Part shown: positions 45,073 to 52,502 of the stretch, piece after piece | Numbering within the stretch: position 1 is the first letter of the stretch | Layout: the number at the start of each line of letters is the position of its first letter | Assembly: GCA_947361225.1 (NCBI GenBank) | Contig: CANAIK010000006.1 | Coordinates: 1-52,608, forward strand | Length of the DNA: 52,608 nucleotides | From: an uncultured bacterium | GTDB taxonomy: Bacteria; Cyanobacteriota; Vampirovibrionia; Gastranaerophilales; Gastranaerophilaceae | Direction: 5' to 3' | Made by a program: the position numbers and the translations under genes | The notes under the pieces: model-generated | What the model saw: the letters and a program-made list of their open reading frames with translations, nothing else | Database searches by the model: none | What the model was told of the DNA's origin: nothing

Positions 45073-46815
45073 ATGGCAATTATAGAAAAAATTAACTCAC
45101 CGGAAGACTTAAAAACCCTTTCAATAAAGGACTTAGAAGAACTTGCGCTTAATATTAGAAAAGGTATCTTGAATCGTGTTAACATAATCGGAGGACACTT
45201 AGGACCCGATTTAGGGATTGTCGAAGCTACAATTGCACTTCATTATGTGTTTAATTCGCCCAAGGATAAAATCGTTTTTGATGTTTCACATCAAATTTAA
45301 CCCCACAAAATGTTAACAGGAAGACGCCACGGGTTTTTTGACAACGAAAGGTTGTTTGAAATTACGGGGTATTCAAATCCCCAAGAATCCGAGCACGATA
45401 ACTTTGTTATAGGACACACTTCAACCTCAATTTCTTTAGCCCTTGGTTTAGCTAAAGCAAGGGATTTAAATAAAGATAATTATAATATTATAGCGCTCAT
45501 TGGAGACGGATCTTTATCCGGAGGACAAGCTTTTGAAGGTTTAAATAACGCATCCGCTCTTAATTCCAACTTTATTATAATTGTTAATGACAATGATATG
45601 TCAATAGCTAAAAATCAAGGGGGATTGTATAAAAATCTTCAAGAATTAAGACAAACCAAGGGAAATAGTGAAAATAATTTCTTTACAAGTTTTGGTTTTG
45701 ATTATTGTTATGTTGATAAAGGCAATGACATTGAACAACTAATTGAAACCTTTAATAAAGTAAAAGATTCAAAAAAACCGATAGTTGTGCACATTAACAC
45801 ACTTAAAGGAAAAGGGTATAAACCGGCTGAGGAAAATAAAGAGGCTTATCATTGGCAATTACCGGATTTTCTTAATCAAAAGCCTGTCGCAGTTGAGCAA
45901 ACCTACGAATCAATAACCACCGATTATATGTTATCCAAAAAAAGAGCGCAAGAACCAATTGTGGTAATTAACCCCGCAACTCCGGGCGCAGTAGGGTTCA
46001 ATGAAGATTTTAGAGAAAAAATGGGCGATAATTATATTGATACGGCAATTGCCGAACAACACGCAGTAGCGCTGGCTTCGGGGCTTGCAAAAAACGGAGC
46101 AAAACCGATTTTAGCGGTTTTGAGCTCTTTTATTCAAAGATCATATGACCAGCTATCGCAAGATTTAGCCCTTAATCAATCAAGTGCAACAATTCTTATA
46201 TACTGGGGCGCAATCGGACCAATGGATGCAACTCATTTGGGCGTTTTTGACATTCCTTTAATTTCTAATATTCCAAATATTGTTTATCTTGCTCCAACCA
46301 ATAAAGAAGAATATTTGGCAATGTTGGACTACTCATACAATCAAAACGAGCGTCCTATAGTTATTAGGGTTCCTTATGGGAAACTTATTTCAACAGGAAC
46401 CAAAGACACAACCGATTATTCGATTCTAAATAAATTCGAGGTTGTTAAAAAAGGGTCAAAAGTTGCACTAATCGGGCTTGGAAACTTCTTTAATTTAGCA
46501 AAAGAAGTAAGGTGTGAACTTGAAAAAATCGGAGTTAATCCAACTTTAATTAACCCAAAATTTATTTCAGGAATCGACAAAGAACTGCTGGATAACTTAA
46601 AAAAAGACCACGATATTGTTGTAACTCTGGAAGACGGGGTTTTAGCAGGCGGTTTCGGGGAAAAAATTGCACGATTCTACGGTTCCTCCAATACAAAAGT
46701 TCTTAATTTTGGAGCAAAAAAAGAATTTACGGATAGAATTTCCCTTAATACACTTTATAAAAGATATCACCTTACAAAAGAACAAATAGTCGAGGATATT
46801 AAAAAAATCTTATAA
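45073..46815 (+). pseudogene. dxs: 1-deoxy-D-xylulose-5-phosphate synthase-like gene with an in-frame TAA
   Basis: The gene encodes a short DXS paralogue (about 580 codons) that would join pyruvate and glyceraldehyde 3-phosphate using thiamine diphosphate. After 75 codons the frame reads FDVSHQI, then TAA (45298-45300), then PHKMLTGRR in the same frame. The stop replaces the tyrosine expected in the DXS motif HQxYPHKxLTGR. The rest is intact: thiamine motif GDGSLSGGQ ... VNDNDMSI, YHWQLPDF, and AIAEQHAVALASGLA with the catalytic Glu. The usual DRAGIVGADG segment is changed to IYWGAIGPMDATH, so it may be a variant enzyme rather than the main DXS. The second part (ATG 45310) has no ribosome site. 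AAAGGAG precedes the ATG at 45073. Readthrough, recent inactivation or a base error could explain it. Confidence 0.85.
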
Positions 46816-46860: not shown

Positions 46861-46935
46861 TGTAACAATTAATCAATTTTTTTTATATTTTTACTTTATA
46901 GACCTATAAAAATATAATTAAATTTGGAGAAATTG

Positions 46936-49900
46936 ATGCAGTATTTTAGCAATATAAACTCACCTTATTTACAGCAACAAAAGATTAATAATAAAATAAA
47001 TAATCAAAAAAATGCCTCTTTTATTCCTTGTTATAACAATTGTCAATTTGACAAGGTTGAATTTGAGACAAAAAAACAAGGTTTGACCGGTAAAATCCGG
47101 GGTGGGTTTAAAAACCTGCTGCATTTTAAATCAAAATCTAATCCACAATCGATAAAAGTTTCAAAAAACATAGTTTCAAACCTGAAAGATTCACTAAAAT
47201 CCATTCCTCAAAAAGAAGAGGATAGAATTGCTTTTATAACAAAATTTATGCAAACAAATCTTATTACAGGGGATAATATTGCAAATAAAAATAATGATTG
47301 TATTGCAAAAGAAGCTTCAAAACTAGCACAACTAAAAGATTCCGATTTAATTCCCGCACTTGAATATTCAATTCAAGTGGCACAGGTCTTAAACAAAAAA
47401 CAACCTCTAATATTCCTTAGTGGCGCAATGGATTCTAATTTTGATATATACAAAAATATTAAAAAAAGAAATATTATAGATATTCTAGAACAAAGAAAAC
47501 AATCTCTGCCCCTTGAATATCAAGAAGATATAAATACAAGATTTGTAAATCATCTTGGGATATTAACCGATAACGAATACAAAAAAGCGTCTCATTTAAT
47601 TCTATCGGTCGGGTTAAAAGACCCTCAAATGGATTTAGACAAACTAATTTCTTTTGCAGTTGAAACAGACAAAGATACTATTAATTATATGATTCAACAC
47701 GATCTATTTAATATTAACAATGTTCCGTATTTTAAAAACAAAAACGATATTCTAAGTGCTTTTAGCCAACAAAAAACTACTGTTGAAAAACTAAACGAAA
47801 GAGGCTTATTGCAGCCAATTAAAGAAAGGGATAATAAAATTCTACCTTTTTCTTATGCTCTGGAATTATCTTTTATTCCGGATGAAGAATGGAGAAATGT
47901 ACAAGATAGAAATATTCTTGGTATGAAAGATGCCAAAGGGTGCTTTATGCGCGATTGCAACCTAAAACGTTTAGCTGATTTGTCTAATCAAGAATGGTCA
48001 AGAATTGAACAAAGAGGTTTAATTGAAAAATGCGAATATTGTCAGGGCAATATAATAGAACTTGCAAAATTGTCCGATTCTGATTGGAATATATTGCAAA
48101 AAAGAGGAATATCTTTAAATAAAGAAATTCTTTATAAAAACGACTGGGAAACACTAACCAAAATTTCAGATGCCGATTGGGAAAAAGGACAAGCAAGGGG
48201 GTTGAATCCCACTAAAGAATTTGATAAAAAACTTCTTGAATTGGACGATGAGCTTTGGAATAAAATAACCTCCAGAGGATTAAACCAAAAAACTAACACG
48301 GGTCAATATAAATATAATAAAGACTCCATTGTTTTGCTTGGAGAACTCGACGACTTATCATTTGAACGTGCAAAACAAAGGGGTTTAATTGAAGAAGACT
48401 ATGGCCTTAATAATCCCTCATTTAATGAGGAAGCAAAAAACCTTACACAATATAATGATGAAACTTATAAATTATACTTCGATAGAGGTTTAGATGAACT
48501 TAACACATCTTTTGAAGTAAAAGATAAATTATTAAACCTATCCGATAAACAATTTAAAAGAATTGAAGAAGATATAAAACCTTTCTGTGATAAATATTCA
48601 TACCAACTAGGTGATAACTATTACGGCAGTACACCAATGAATGGAATTGAAAAATTTTTAGACCTTGTATATTTAAATGACGAAGAATACGAAATTGCAA
48701 AAGAATTTTTAGGATTTGAAGGATTAAAAGCTCAAAATCAACTTAGCGCAAGTGAAATTAAAGCAATAATAAAGCTGGAGGCTGATAAACGTGAAAGAAT
48801 AAAACAAATACTCAAATTGCAAATTGATAAAAGCTTAAAAGACGAGCAAACGAACACTTTTATAAGTCAAAAAAGATACAATCTTTATACCTTGTTAGAT
48901 TTATCCTCAATCAATGATAAACAATTAAGCAGATTAAATAGTCTTATAAATTTAGAAGGAAGACAACAAGATTTTAAAGATCCTGAAATTTTAATCCTTC
49001 TTAGCTTGAGTGATAGTGAATTTAAAGAGGCTTCAAGATATTTTATCGTACCGGAAAGAAATCAGGATCAATTTAGTGCAATAGATGCTATTGATTTATC
49101 AAAAATGACTCAGGATGAGATTGAAAAACTAAAACCTTTCTTTGGATTAAAGGCAAATCAAGGCAAACATCTTGATCTTAATCAAATGATACTGGTTTCT
49201 CAACTTGATGATAAAAAATTGCAAAGATTGTATGAGTTGTCAAATATTCCCAAAAGAAAAAAATGTGAGCAATTCTCTTTTGACGAAATATTAAAATTGC
49301 TTAATTTATCAGATAAAGAGTATCAAAGAGCCCAAAAATTATTCTTTATTGACCAGAATCATAAACATTATAACAAACACAAACAGCTTTCAGGAGAAGA
49401 AATTGTCAAATTAACAGAATATGATGATAATGACATTGATTGGCTTTTAAGAATAGGGTTCCTTGATAACAATGATAATATAAATTATGTAAAGGATATA
49501 ATTAAATTCAAAAAATATTGCGGAATAAATTCCCTAGAACAACTTTCAAAAAAAGAAAGATGCGAGTTTTTATTTAATATAAAAAACCACGGAAACTTAT
49601 TTAAATATACTGACGCCAAAGAATATATTAATATATCATCAATATTACCTAAAGACGAAAGAGAATATATCAAATTTTTAAACGAAATTAAACCGGATTT
49701 ATTCGAACTTGCAAAAAAACACAAGCTAAGGGACTTGGATATTCCAACCGTATTTGAATTTGCTTTGTTCTTTAACGAAACCTGCAAAGATATAGATTCT
49801 ATTGAAAATTTAAGTATTAAAGATAAAAGAAAACTTTTGAATAACTTGATAAAGGCAAATAGTGAATTATTTGGCGACGAAATAAAAGAACTGTGTCAAA

Positions 49901-51741
49901 ACTCTAAAATTCTTCCAAAAAACAAAGAAGAATATTGCGCATTGTTGCCAAAATTAGTTAAATCCATAGGGATTTCAACCAATGAATTGTCAAACGACAT
50001 AAAATCCAGTTTTTATAGAACCTTAAGTTCAATTGAAACACCAAACAGCAGATTTAGAACCTTTGACTTCGAAAACCCGAATTTAGAATTGAATTTGACT
50101 TATCCAAGAAACAAATTTGTTTCTGATATAGCTCAAATTCTATCTCCCTTAACAAAAGAAGAAAAAAACATTGTTTGCAACTACTTTGGATTTGAATTAA
50201 TTACAAAACAAGATAAAAACTTTATAAACGGCTATCCTGTTAATCTTAACAACGGGGTTGAACTTGCTCAAATTGACGATCCAAAATTGAAACAAATAAT
50301 TGAAAAAATACGTCCTCTTGTTAAGGATTTTAGCGAAAATAACCAAATAACAATTAAAGGAGAAGTGGAACTATCAAAAGAATTGAATAATATTATAAAA
50401 GCTTTTCCGGAATTTATTACTGAAATCGGGAAAAAACAACACCGCACCCACGATTATACTTTAGATATTCACTCCTTAAAAGTGCTGCAGGGGGTTATTA
50501 ATAATCCTAAATATGAAAACCTTCCCGAGAACGATAAAACTGCACTAAAAATAGCGGCATTGTTGCACGACCTAACAAAACAAGAAAACGCAAAAGATAT
50601 AACACATCCAATAGAAACTGCGTATGATGTTTATTATTTGTTGCAAAAACTAAATTTATCGGAAGATGAAAAGCTTAAAATTTATCAAATTATAAAAAAC
50701 CACAACTGGCTTGAACAATATAATAAAACAAAATTAATAAACAACAAAAGAGTTCCATTGACAGATATTGAACGAACAAAAATAGCTAAAGATATAGCAT
50801 TTGAATTAAGAAAAGACAATTCTTTTAATATGGCAAGTATTCTAACGGAAGCTGATATGAAAGCGGTTAAAAGAGACGGGAAATTCTTCGAAGGATTGCA
50901 AGATATATTAGAACAAGGAGAAAACGAAGTCAGAACTTATGTTAAACAAATAAAAGAAAGTGCAATTCCTCTCCCTCAGACAAAAATTCCCAAAGCGAGT
51001 GAGATAAAAGTTGACGGACAAAAAGTTAAAGACGTTACAACAACATTAACAAACGGAACTAAAGTAACCAATAAAGTGTTGTATCTTGAACCTGATGCGG
51101 ATTTATCAAAATACGGATTTGGTGAGAATTTGAACTCAAATGACCTTAATGTTCTAATTCACGCACTTGATAACGGTGAACAATCGACAATTTTTCAAGC
51201 ATTGGGTCAGGTGGATTCAAATGCATTGTTAAGCACATCTTATGTAACATACAATCAAAATAATTACCACGCTTTTAGAGAACAAGGATTTATTCTAGAT
51301 GTTGATTCAGATGATATTAACGCAGGTTATTGCCACGATTTTGGTTCGGGATTCAAAAAAGATTTAGATTTGTTAAAAAATTCATATCTGTTTAACGGAA
51401 AAGAAAGCAAATACAGAAACTATATTTCGCAAAATTTAAAAGATATTCTAGGGTTGGATAATGAACAATATTCCAGACTTTACTCAAAAATTAAAAACAA
51501 ATCCATAACAGAAATCGATAAAGAACTCCCGGAAGTTGGGGGAGCCCTAAGAGAACTGTTTAAAATAATGGAAGGCGGAAAAAGAAGAAACAACAGAAAA
51601 TATAATGAAATATTAATTACAAGACCAAAAATTCAAGGAGTTTTTACTTATGGTGAACAAAAGGATATTTCAACAATTCCAAGCTTTTTAAGAGAATATG
51701 CAGCGGAAAATGATATTCTAATTGTTCATTTTGGAAACTAA
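46936..51741 (+). CDS. Giant helical-repeat protein with C-terminal HD phosphohydrolase domain
   Basis: I do not recognise the whole protein (1601 residues). Start: ATG 46936, preceded by GGAG six bases upstream; an in-frame TTG at 46924 overlaps that site. An N-terminal basic region has a GKIRGGFKNLLHF stretch. Residues about 206-844 hold at least 15 repeats of 26-50 residues with the pattern L-S-D-x-[DE]-[WFY]-x-x-x-x-x-R-G-L, for example LSNQEWSRIEQRGLI, LSDSDWNILQKRGI and LDDLSFERAKQRGL, likely an alpha solenoid. An HD domain lies at about 1165-1315: HDYTLDIHSLKVL, AALLHDLTK with His1211 and Asp1212, NHNW with His1256, and TEADMKA with Asp1307. Its style is that of GlnD or CCA-enzyme HD domains. 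The last 280 residues are unassigned. There is no signal peptide. It is a single-gene unit with terminators on both sides. Confidence 0.8.
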   Translation: MQYFSNINSPYLQQQKINNKINNQKNASFIPCYNNCQFDKVEFETKKQGLTGKIRGGFKNLLHFKSKSNPQSIKVSKNIVSNLKDSLKSIPQKEEDRIAFITKFMQTNLITGDNIANKNNDCIAKEASKLAQLKDSDLIPALEYSIQVAQVLNKKQPLIFLSGAMDSNFDIYKNIKKRNIIDILEQRKQSLPLEYQEDINTRFVNHLGILTDNEYKKASHLILSVGLKDPQMDLDKLISFAVETDKDTINYMIQHDLFNINNVPYFKNKNDILSAFSQQKTTVEKLNERGLLQPIKERDNKILPFSYALELSFIPDEEWRNVQDRNILGMKDAKGCFMRDCNLKRLADLSNQEWSRIEQRGLIEKCEYCQGNIIELAKLSDSDWNILQKRGISLNKEILYKNDWETLTKISDADWEKGQARGLNPTKEFDKKLLELDDELWNKITSRGLNQKTNTGQYKYNKDSIVLLGELDDLSFERAKQRGLIEEDYGLNNPSFNEEAKNLTQYNDETYKLYFDRGLDELNTSFEVKDKLLNLSDKQFKRIEEDIKPFCDKYSYQLGDNYYGSTPMNGIEKFLDLVYLNDEEYEIAKEFLGFEGLKAQNQLSASEIKAIIKLEADKRERIKQILKLQIDKSLKDEQTNTFISQKRYNLYTLLDLSSINDKQLSRLNSLINLEGRQQDFKDPEILILLSLSDSEFKEASRYFIVPERNQDQFSAIDAIDLSKMTQDEIEKLKPFFGLKANQGKHLDLNQMILVSQLDDKKLQRLYELSNIPKRKKCEQFSFDEILKLLNLSDKEYQRAQKLFFIDQNHKHYNKHKQLSGEEIVKLTEYDDNDIDWLLRIGFLDNNDNINYVKDIIKFKKYCGINSLEQLSKKERCEFLFNIKNHGNLFKYTDAKEYINISSILPKDEREYIKFLNEIKPDLFELAKKHKLRDLDIPTVFEFALFFNETCKDIDSIENLSIKDKRKLLNNLIKANSELFGDEIKELCQNSKILPKNKEEYCALLPKLVKSIGISTNELSNDIKSSFYRTLSSIETPNSRFRTFDFENPNLELNLTYPRNKFVSDIAQILSPLTKEEKNIVCNYFGFELITKQDKNFINGYPVNLNNGVELAQIDDPKLKQIIEKIRPLVKDFSENNQITIKGEVELSKELNNIIKAFPEFITEIGKKQHRTHDYTLDIHSLKVLQGVINNPKYENLPENDKTALKIAALLHDLTKQENAKDITHPIETAYDVYYLLQKLNLSEDEKLKIYQIIKNHNWLEQYNKTKLINNKRVPLTDIERTKIAKDIAFELRKDNSFNMASILTEADMKAVKRDGKFFEGLQDILEQGENEVRTYVKQIKESAIPLPQTKIPKASEIKVDGQKVKDVTTTLTNGTKVTNKVLYLEPDADLSKYGFGENLNSNDLNVLIHALDNGEQSTIFQALGQVDSNALLSTSYVTYNQNNYHAFREQGFILDVDSDDINAGYCHDFGSGFKKDLDLLKNSYLFNGKESKYRNYISQNLKDILGLDNEQYSRLYSKIKNKSITEIDKELPEVGGALRELFKIMEGGKRRNNRKYNEILITRPKIQGVFTYGEQKDISTIPSFLREYAAENDILIVHFGN

Positions 51742-51784: not shown

Positions 51785-51809
51785 AAAAACCACTCACAGA
51801 GTGGTTTTT
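51785..51809 (+). terminator. Intrinsic terminator after the giant HD protein gene
   Basis: AAAAACCACTC (51785-51795) pairs with GAGTGGTTTTT (51799-51809) around a three-base loop, with the T run inside the stem end. Confidence 0.88.
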
Positions 51810-51863: not shown

Positions 51864-52151
51864 CTACATCGAATTTATCATATTGTTAATTCTAATTAAC
51901 TTATCTAAATCACAATTACATAATTTATTATTAATTAATTCTCGCACCTTGTCTGAATTTGATTGTGGTTCAGATAAAAGCAATTCAACAGATTGAATAT
52001 TAAAATACGACACAGATTCTATCAATTGTGTTCAATGTTTCTATAGCCTTGTACACTCATACTAATTTTTTTGCACAAATTACTCTTGGGCGAGTTTGTT
52101 TGCAGTTCGTAATCGTTTAATGCCGTTAGTTATTAATTCTTGATAACCCAT
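51864..52151 (-). pseudogene. Decayed XRE-family regulator gene
   Basis: From ATG 52151 the frame reads MGYQELITNGIKRLRTANK and LAQE, a standard XRE helix-turn-helix start, then hits TAA. The next helix continues in a shifted frame as ISMSVQGYRNIEHN. A third piece, TIDRICVVF then NIQSVELLLSEPQSNSDKV through RELINNKLCNCDLDKL, resumes in other frames, and the last frame ends at TAG 51864-51866. A stop, at least two shifts and a small deletion make it a pseudogene. It sits directly downstream of an intact XRE gene on the same strand. The 375 bases between the 51.74 kb stop and 52.15 kb hold only the terminator and this remnant. Confidence 0.8.
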
Positions 52152-52172: not shown

Positions 52173-52502
52173 CTATTTAAGCAATTCTATAATGCTTTTT
52201 AGTTTTAATTTTGTTTCTTTAGACAGATTCACTAATAGGTTTAGTATTTCATAATCAATAGGTTCGAGCTTTTCTAAATTACTATTAAAAAATCCAAATA
52301 AAAAATTCGGTTCTATTTTTCCATTCTCCATCATTGAAAACAATGTGGTAATATCCGGTAAATTTTTAGCATTCTCAATATTCGATAAATTGGACTGTTC
52401 TAAGTCTATAATCCCACAAAATTGTTCTTGGGTATAATTATTATGAGTTCTAAAAGCTTTAATCCTCTGACCCAATTCTGTTTTTATCTTTTGAGTATCC
52501 AT
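52173..52502 (-). CDS. XRE-family helix-turn-helix transcriptional regulator
   Basis: This 109-residue DNA-binding protein has an N-terminal Cro/C1-type domain: LGQRIKAFRTHNNYTQEQFC, then IIDLEQSNLSNIENAKNLPD. A short Ile/Leu-rich helical C-terminus (EPIDYEILNLLVNLSKETKL) probably dimerises. The length is normal for a small single-domain repressor. It is the last complete gene of the window, upstream on the minus strand of the decayed XRE gene. The 106 bases from its start to the right edge hold A/T-rich sequence with TATAAT-like elements on both strands but nothing I can assign firmly. Confidence 0.88.
   Translation of the reverse strand: MDTQKIKTELGQRIKAFRTHNNYTQEQFCGIIDLEQSNLSNIENAKNLPDITTLFSMMENGKIEPNFLFGFFNSNLEKLEPIDYEILNLLVNLSKETKLKLKSIIELLK

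What the first reader, a model, noticed from the sequence alone, without database searches (positions are those of the whole stretch)
46936..51741. Giant solenoid protein ending in an HD phosphohydrolase domain
At least 15 copies of an L-S-D-x-[DE]-[WFY]...R-G-L repeat (residues about 206-844) precede an HD domain with all metal-binding positions present. I know no named family with this build. A long recognition solenoid coupled to a nucleotide or phosphate hydrolase could act on host or phage factors, or be a lineage-specific signalling enzyme. It is flanked by terminators and sits next to tandem XRE genes, as accessory genes often do.
Basis: partly seen in the sequence, partly recalled or inferred. 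Interest (0 to 1): 0.7.

Follow-up and report, generated by a model that had tools for sequence, protein, structure and literature searches.

The report
Giant solenoid–HD–ADP-ribosyltransferase-like gut protein
A gut Gastranaerophilales bacterium (a non-photosynthetic relative of cyanobacteria) carries a 1,601-residue protein with a long, swappable helical binding arm joined to two conserved enzyme heads, an HD metal phosphohydrolase and a previously unrecognised domain that looks like an ADP-ribosyltransferase; this lineage-specific family of modular modifying enzymes appears not to have been described.

Summary
In detail: one 1,601-aa ORF (ATG 46936) with 19 two-helix-type repeat units (residues 203-848; 15 beat all 100 shuffles in leave-one-out tests) and an HD domain whose metal ligands are all present and nearly invariant in relatives. 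The last ~260 residues form a separate domain whose AlphaFold2 model (pLDDT 88.5) matches only ADP-ribosyltransferase (ART) superfamily folds in the structural re-ranking, best the mono-ART CteC, with an H-[ST]xS-E signature (H1409 and E1558 unchanged in every relative whose alignment covers them) and a helical insertion before the catalytic-type Glu, as in CteC. No Pfam ART model recognises it. HD+ART form a conserved C-terminal core; N-termini vary (other repeat arrays, hydrophobic segments, very long frames). The family was found only in Gastranaerophilales (104 of 386 phylum genomes), not in phages or viral contigs. The window's protein is a chimera: its core is 68% identical to one clade, its solenoid collinear with proteins whose cores belong to the other clade. 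Best reading: a targeted ADP-ribosyltransferase with a linked phosphohydrolase and an exchangeable recognition arm. Chemistry, target and site of action are inferred, not shown.

The parts
46890..46929 (+). promoter-like TTTACT-17-TATAAT (46890-46918) and Shine-Dalgarno GGAG (46926-46929) of the gene
   Evidence: consensus match only
46936..51741 (+). the gene: 1,601-aa solenoid-HD-ART protein
   Evidence: conserved core in relatives
46936..47541 (+). residues 1-202: N-terminal region without recognised domain, no signal peptide or strongly hydrophobic segment (residues 71-202 belong to the region shared with L192/L193/L050)
47542..49479 (+). residues 203-848: 19 repeat units of about 30-40 residues, predicted two-helix (alpha/alpha) solenoid
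   Evidence: fold inferred, not modelled
49525..49968 (+). residues ~864-1011: two diverged copies (offset 89) of a helical element 'LS..KR..L...' that precedes the core
   Evidence: self-match 895/984 and 864/953; helices in the model
50335..50958 (+). residues ~1134-1341: HD phosphohydrolase domain; ligands H1179, H1211, D1212, H1224, H1256, D1307
50953..51738 (+). residues 1340-1601: ADP-ribosyltransferase-fold domain; H1409, S1433-T-S1435, G1451, K1475, E1558
51785..51809 (.). stem-loop with T/A runs on both sides, probable terminator after the gene
   Evidence: (minus-strand call)

Best explanation
It is a member of a lineage-specific family of modular modifying enzymes. An exchangeable N-terminal arm, here a solenoid of about 19 units, picks the target. 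The C-terminal ART domain splits NAD+ and transfers ADP-ribose to that target. The HD domain in front of it, a metal-dependent phosphohydrolase, acts on a phosphate-containing bond of the ADP-ribosylated product or of the NAD(P) donor, as a trimming or reversing step analogous to the HD of GlnD. Shown: the ORF, the repeats, the HD site, the ART-like fold, conservation of both catalytic sets, their coupling, and exchange of N-termini between cores. Inferred: the solenoid fold and target binding, NAD+ use, ADP-ribose transfer, what HD hydrolyses, and that the two act in one pathway.
For: HD metal ligands invariant in 42 cores and HD fold at Z 17 to a bacterial poly(A) polymerase/tRNA nucleotidyltransferase HD region; nearest curated family GlnD. 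C-terminal domain: confident model; best PDB matches CteC mono-ART, and all ten entries with Z of 3 or more are CteC/effector, DarT or Tpt1, i.e. ART superfamily. S-to-E spacing of 123 residues and a helical insertion before the Glu as reported for CteC (PMC10810742). H1409 kept in 83/83 and E1558 in 72/72 relatives whose alignment covers them. 76 of 87 ART-domain proteins have HD directly before ART, so the two are coupled. N-termini are exchanged: the window's residues 71-645 belong with clade-B proteins while its core belongs to clade A with 100/100 support.
Against: No sequence profile recognises the domain as ART and Z 7.9 alone is moderate. The R of the R-S-E class, which CteC needs, is H here. 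NAD+ binding, transfer and HD hydrolysis are untested. Eleven ART proteins lack HD, so HD is not always needed. The solenoid was not modelled.
Confidence: 0.5

Rival explanations
1. Exported effector: the protein is delivered into eukaryotic gut cells or other bacteria, where the solenoid binds a target that ART and HD modify. It would work like the phosphodiesterase plus mono-ART pair of Legionella SidE, but with a metal-dependent HD.
For: Closest ART fold is CteC, an injected ubiquitin-modifying enzyme; swappable N-termini and multiple copies; the genome has several flagellar/type III-type export-gate genes and flagellin.
Against: No signal peptide; 14 of 71 relatives have an N-terminal hydrophobic segment that could anchor them in the own membrane. 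Export genes found look flagellar or are below the cut-offs for injectisome models; VirB4 and VipB not found.
Confidence: 0.2
2. Anti-phage or anti-invader sensor: the solenoid recognises an invader component and switches on ART/HD, which modify or deplete NAD+ or nucleotides to stop the cell.
For: Fast-changing, exchanged N-termini on a conserved catalytic core, patchy presence, variable site after dxs; HD resembles Cas3-HD models in 22 of 42 members, though as generic HD.
Against: No defence-gene enrichment or partner genes next to family members; nothing in phages, viral contigs; no PADLOC model for the family.
Confidence: 0.15
3. Intracellular regulatory enzyme of the GlnD kind: ART and HD write and erase a modification on a house protein, with different N-termini giving different inputs or membrane anchoring.
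For: GlnD is the nearest HD family and is a writer plus HD eraser in one chain (PMC4285133); possible membrane-anchored subclade.
Against: Patchy and multi-copy, absent from many complete relatives, with pseudogene-like copies; a core house function would be steadier.
Confidence: 0.15
4. The C-terminal domain has an ART fold but no transferase activity and only binds a nucleotide or target; HD is the sole enzyme.
For: No sequence profile calls it an ART; the Arg of R-S-E is replaced by His.
Against: H1409, G1451, K1475 and E1558 are the invariant residues of the domain over 60 divergent copies, the pattern of an active site; 11 proteins carry the domain without HD.
Confidence: 0.15

Closest known systems
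CteC, mono-ADP-ribosyltransferase of Chromobacterium violaceum (PDB 8ux2; PMC10810742)
   Same: Closest solved fold of the C-terminal domain (Z 7.9, 156 residues, rmsd 3.8), Ser and Glu with the same spacing, helical insertion before the Glu
   Different: His instead of the essential Arg; about 10% identity; CteC is a small single-domain effector without HD or solenoid
GlnD, PII uridylyltransferase/uridylyl-removing enzyme
   Same: Nearest curated family to the HD part (NCBIfam TIGR01693, E 4.5e-6); transferase and HD hydrolase in one chain
   Different: Score 25 against a cut-off of 519; no nucleotidyltransferase or ACT domain seen; ART-like instead of nucleotidyltransferase and on the other side of HD
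Bacterial poly(A) polymerase / tRNA nucleotidyltransferase HD region (PDB 3wfo-3wfs)
   Same: Best fold match of residues 1019-1341 (Z 17, 198 residues)
   Different: No nucleotidyltransferase head; about 15-17% identity
SidE phosphoribosyl-ubiquitin ligases of Legionella (PMC6941232)
   Same: Phosphodiesterase domain followed by a mono-ART domain in one large protein
   Different: SidE phosphodiesterase uses a His-Glu-His set with a histidine intermediate, not the HD metal ligands; ART classes differ; no shared sequence; analogy only
KptA-Nudix fusion of a giant virus (PMC9503650)
   Same: Precedent for an ART domain fused to a hydrolase thought to process its product
   Different: Different hydrolase fold, RNA-repair setting, no solenoid

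Membership tests
HD phosphohydrolase superfamily | H...HD...D metal-binding motif | tested here: met
   H1179, H1211-D1212, D1307 plus H1224, H1256; invariant in 42, 69-72 of 75
HD phosphohydrolase superfamily | HD helical fold | tested here: met
   model pLDDT 87.4; Z 17 to an HD region, also PPX/GppA and PDEs
HD phosphohydrolase superfamily | metal-dependent phosphohydrolase activity | not testable with these tools
   needs enzyme assay
GlnD | full-length equivalog score | tested here: not met
   25.2 bits against cut-off 519.4; only HD region aligns
ADP-ribosyltransferase superfamily | ART fold | tested here: met
   all entries with Z of 3 or more are ART superfamily; best Z 7.9 (moderate)
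ADP-ribosyltransferase superfamily | R/H in the first core strand, S/Y in the middle, E near the end | tested here: met
   H1409, S1433-T-S1435, E1558 in strand positions
ADP-ribosyltransferase superfamily | NAD+ binding and ADP-ribose transfer | not testable with these tools
   needs assay
R-S-E (ARTC) class, including CteC | Arg at the first catalytic position | tested here: not met
   His in 83 of 83 relatives covering the site
H-Y-[EDQ] class | Tyr at the middle position | tested here: inconclusive
   no invariant Tyr; structural equivalence of the middle position not resolved without coordinates
SidE phosphoribosyl-ubiquitin ligases | R-S-E mono-ART and His-Glu-His phosphodiesterase | tested here: not met
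   His for Arg; HD metal-ligand set instead (PMC6941232)
Known anti-phage defence systems (PADLOC-DB 2.0) | match to a defence-system protein model beyond the generic HD | tested here: not met
   only Cas3-HD type matches to the HD part; neighbours not enriched
Named repeat families (TPR, HEAT, ankyrin and others in Pfam) | Pfam match in residues 203-848 | tested here: not met
   no Pfam or NCBIfam match; fold-level kinship not tested

The most novel reading that the evidence does not exclude
A new class of two-step conjugating or processing enzyme: ART loads ADP-ribose on a target chosen by an exchangeable solenoid, and the adjacent metal-dependent HD domain cleaves the pyrophosphate to leave or transfer a phosphoribosyl group. 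It would be a metal-dependent counterpart of the SidE reaction that arose separately in gut relatives of cyanobacteria.
Probability: 0.1. Interest if true: 0.92.

Novelty: new variant of a known kind. Interest (0 to 1): 0.62.

Why it matters
Gastranaerophilales are common, mostly uncultured gut bacteria whose ways of dealing with host, phage and rivals are little known. A family of giant proteins with a conserved HD+ART-like core and shuffled recognition arms, present in about a quarter of the sampled phylum genomes and in 21 of 27 relatives of the same genus, gives a concrete, testable handle. If confirmed it adds an unrecognised H-S-E family to the ART superfamily and a new pairing of ADP-ribosylation with an HD hydrolase.

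Tried and rejected
1) Phage or mobile origin: no hits in phages or viral contigs; the only plasmid hit is a GlnD HD region. 2) Defence island: neighbour scan without clear enrichment, no conserved partner. 3) Profile comparison of the ART-like domain with KptA and RES: uninformative, since the two positive controls do not find each other. 4) AcrIF14 and RadA matches of the ART profile: weak and partial, taken as chance. 5) 'FKG' N-terminal motif as an export signal of this family: 12 of 78 against 26 of 357 other genes, absent from the window protein; not pursued. 8) VirB4 and VipB were sought and not found in the genome. 9) SidE-type phosphodiesterases did not appear among the rows shown for the HD core; absence from a cut list is no evidence against kinship.

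Full report
OBSERVATION. The window belongs to a Gastranaerophilales genome: named relatives of this protein are Candidatus Gastranaerophilales/Melainabacteria or unnamed gut bacteria. The ORF at 46936-51741 (+) encodes 1,601 aa, with GGAG six bases before the ATG and a promoter-like TTTACT-17-TATAAT in the gap after dxs. Internal repeats are real: 35 strong self-matches against 2-7 in ten shuffles. I split residues 203-848 into 19 units. With HMMs built without the unit under test, 15 units beat all 100 shuffles of themselves and 17 beat at least 98. The pattern (helix, 'SD' turn, second helix) suggests an alpha/alpha solenoid, but this part was not modelled (inference).

CORE. Relatives in 55 of 97 related genomes mostly share residues ~930-1600; the first 900 residues match in only 10 of 288 family genomes. 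In 42 aligned cores the invariant residues include H1179, H1211-D1212, K1215, H1224, H1256, W1258 and D1307 of the HD part and H1409, G1451, K1475 and E1558 of the C-terminal part. The core model is confident (pLDDT 87.4, pTM 0.87). Its HD half aligns with a bacterial poly(A) polymerase/tRNA nucleotidyltransferase at Z 17 over 198 residues, then with PPX/GppA and cyclic-nucleotide phosphodiesterases. The profile's best PDB sequence hit is the same polymerase (E 0.0098), and the nearest curated family is GlnD. The additional conserved histidines beyond the minimal H-HD-D motif suggest a two-metal site (inference from established HD families).

THE MISSED DOMAIN. Residues 1340-1601 were modelled alone from 60 relatives (pLDDT 88.5, pTM 0.89). 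Foldseek's top two hits are chains of the mono-ADP-ribosyltransferase CteC (E 0.017 and 0.026). In the structural re-ranking the ten entries shown are five entries of CteC, four of DarT and yeast Tpt1, all of the ART superfamily. Z 7.9 alone would be moderate; the consistency of the list and the motif carry the case. CteC's triad is R65, S97, E220, with a four-helix insertion between strands 4 and 5 (PMC10810742). The window domain has H70, S96 and E219 in model numbering (H1409, S1435, E1558), the same Ser-to-Glu spacing of 123, and helices at 138-207 just before the strand with E219. H1409 is kept in 83 of 83 and E1558 in 72 of 72 relatives whose alignment covers them; S1435 is Ser in 76 of 86. 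In some HD-less and divergent copies the alignment does not reach the Glu position, so conservation there is open. ARTs are classed as H-H-h, H-Y-[EDQ] and R-S-E (PMC9503650); an H-S-E pattern lies between classes. No Pfam, PHROG or PDB sequence profile recognises the domain convincingly.

ARCHITECTURE OF THE FAMILY. Of 87 distinct ART-domain proteins or fragments collected, 76 have HD directly before ART and 11 do not (a few of these are truncated or split). HD-less ones include 431-451-residue proteins whose N-terminal part resembles the window's first repeat type by eye (L153, L157; one HMM hit in L153) and a conserved 468-residue type (L138-L141). N-terminal regions run from under 200 to thousands of residues (open frame of 6,621 codons in G197). 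27 of 74 testable ones carry strong internal repeats, mostly at 30-37-residue spacing. In 14 of 71 proteins a stretch hydrophobic enough for a transmembrane helix lies in the first 400 residues, mostly in the ~1,000-residue subclade. Tandem copies occur (L067, L070, L099, L102).

CHIMERA. The window's residues 71-645 align end to end at 33-34% with L192, L193 and L050, whose cores are only 27-29% identical to the window's core. The window core is 68% identical to L033 and 48% to L194, whose N-terminal parts match only through scattered repeats. In a maximum-likelihood tree of 36 cores the window joins L033 with 100/100 support, while L192, L193, L050 and L031 lie in the opposite, 100/100-supported clade. 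The simplest reading is exchange of the recognition arm between cores.

SETTING AND DISTRIBUTION. ART-domain matches occur in 104 of 386 phylum genomes, all in one family except one genome of the same order. None occur in phages or viral contigs. The gene follows dxs. In 20 genus relatives the upstream genes are partly conserved while the downstream side differs from genome to genome; HD-ART genes also lie about 3.5 kb downstream of dxs in G016 and G013. This looks like a variable site; whether that placement exceeds chance was not tested formally. The own genome holds a paralogue on C14 whose N-terminal repeats are interrupted by a stop, an HD fragment on C64 and an HD-less copy on C9.

MECHANISM. 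Shown: anatomy, conservation, coupling, modular exchange. Inferred: the arm binds a target, ART uses NAD+ to add ADP-ribose, and HD hydrolyses a phosphate-containing bond of product or donor. GlnD gives a precedent for writer and HD eraser in one chain (PMC4285133), SidE for phosphodiesterase plus mono-ART (PMC6941232), and a viral KptA-Nudix fusion for ART plus product processing (PMC9503650). Membership in GlnD, SidE or the R-S-E class fails on tested features. Whether the protein works inside the cell, against phage, or is delivered outside is open. The genome has more than one flagellar/type III-type export-gate gene and flagellin, which permits but does not show export; VirB4 and VipB were not found.

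VERDICT. It is a new variant of known kinds (HD and ART superfamilies) in a combination for which I found no description in the papers searched.

Noticed in passing
window 45073-46815 (stop at 45298-45300): The dxs gene just upstream has an in-frame TAA (SHQI*PHKMLTGR). All 27 other genomes of the genus have an intact ORF of about 580-620 codons, and this is the only copy found in the genome. Assembly error, recent decay or recoding not distinguished.
   Followed up: partly
site after dxs, e.g. L166, L168, L174, L181: The place after dxs is variable across the genus and holds other unusual large proteins, among them a 1,407-aa protein with a tandem duplication and a 772-aa protein with DDEKY repeats and an HELGH metallopeptidase motif.
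   Followed up: partly
L054, L062, L094, L095, L096: A family of about 145-residue proteins lies directly downstream, same strand, of five of the longest HD-ART genes.
   Followed up: no
many loci, first ~100 residues: Unrelated enzymes in these genomes often carry an NFKG/SFKG/SFG-like motif near the N-terminus (12 of 78 family proteins and 26 of 357 others, against 2 and 13 in a control stretch). It could be a sorting signal.
   Followed up: partly
G000 C17 (L187) and C59 (L189): The genome has a second FlhA-like export gate in a fliE-fliF-like cluster besides FlhA proper, and a third partial copy beside DNA methyltransferases on C41; flagellin genes are present.
   Followed up: partly
G000 C14 (L031) and C64 (L032): Own-genome paralogues look decayed: N-terminal repeats interrupted by a stop on C14, HD without ART on C64.
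   Followed up: partly
window 51864-52151 (minus): Decayed remnant of a second XRE-type gene beside the intact one at 52173-52502.
   Followed up: no
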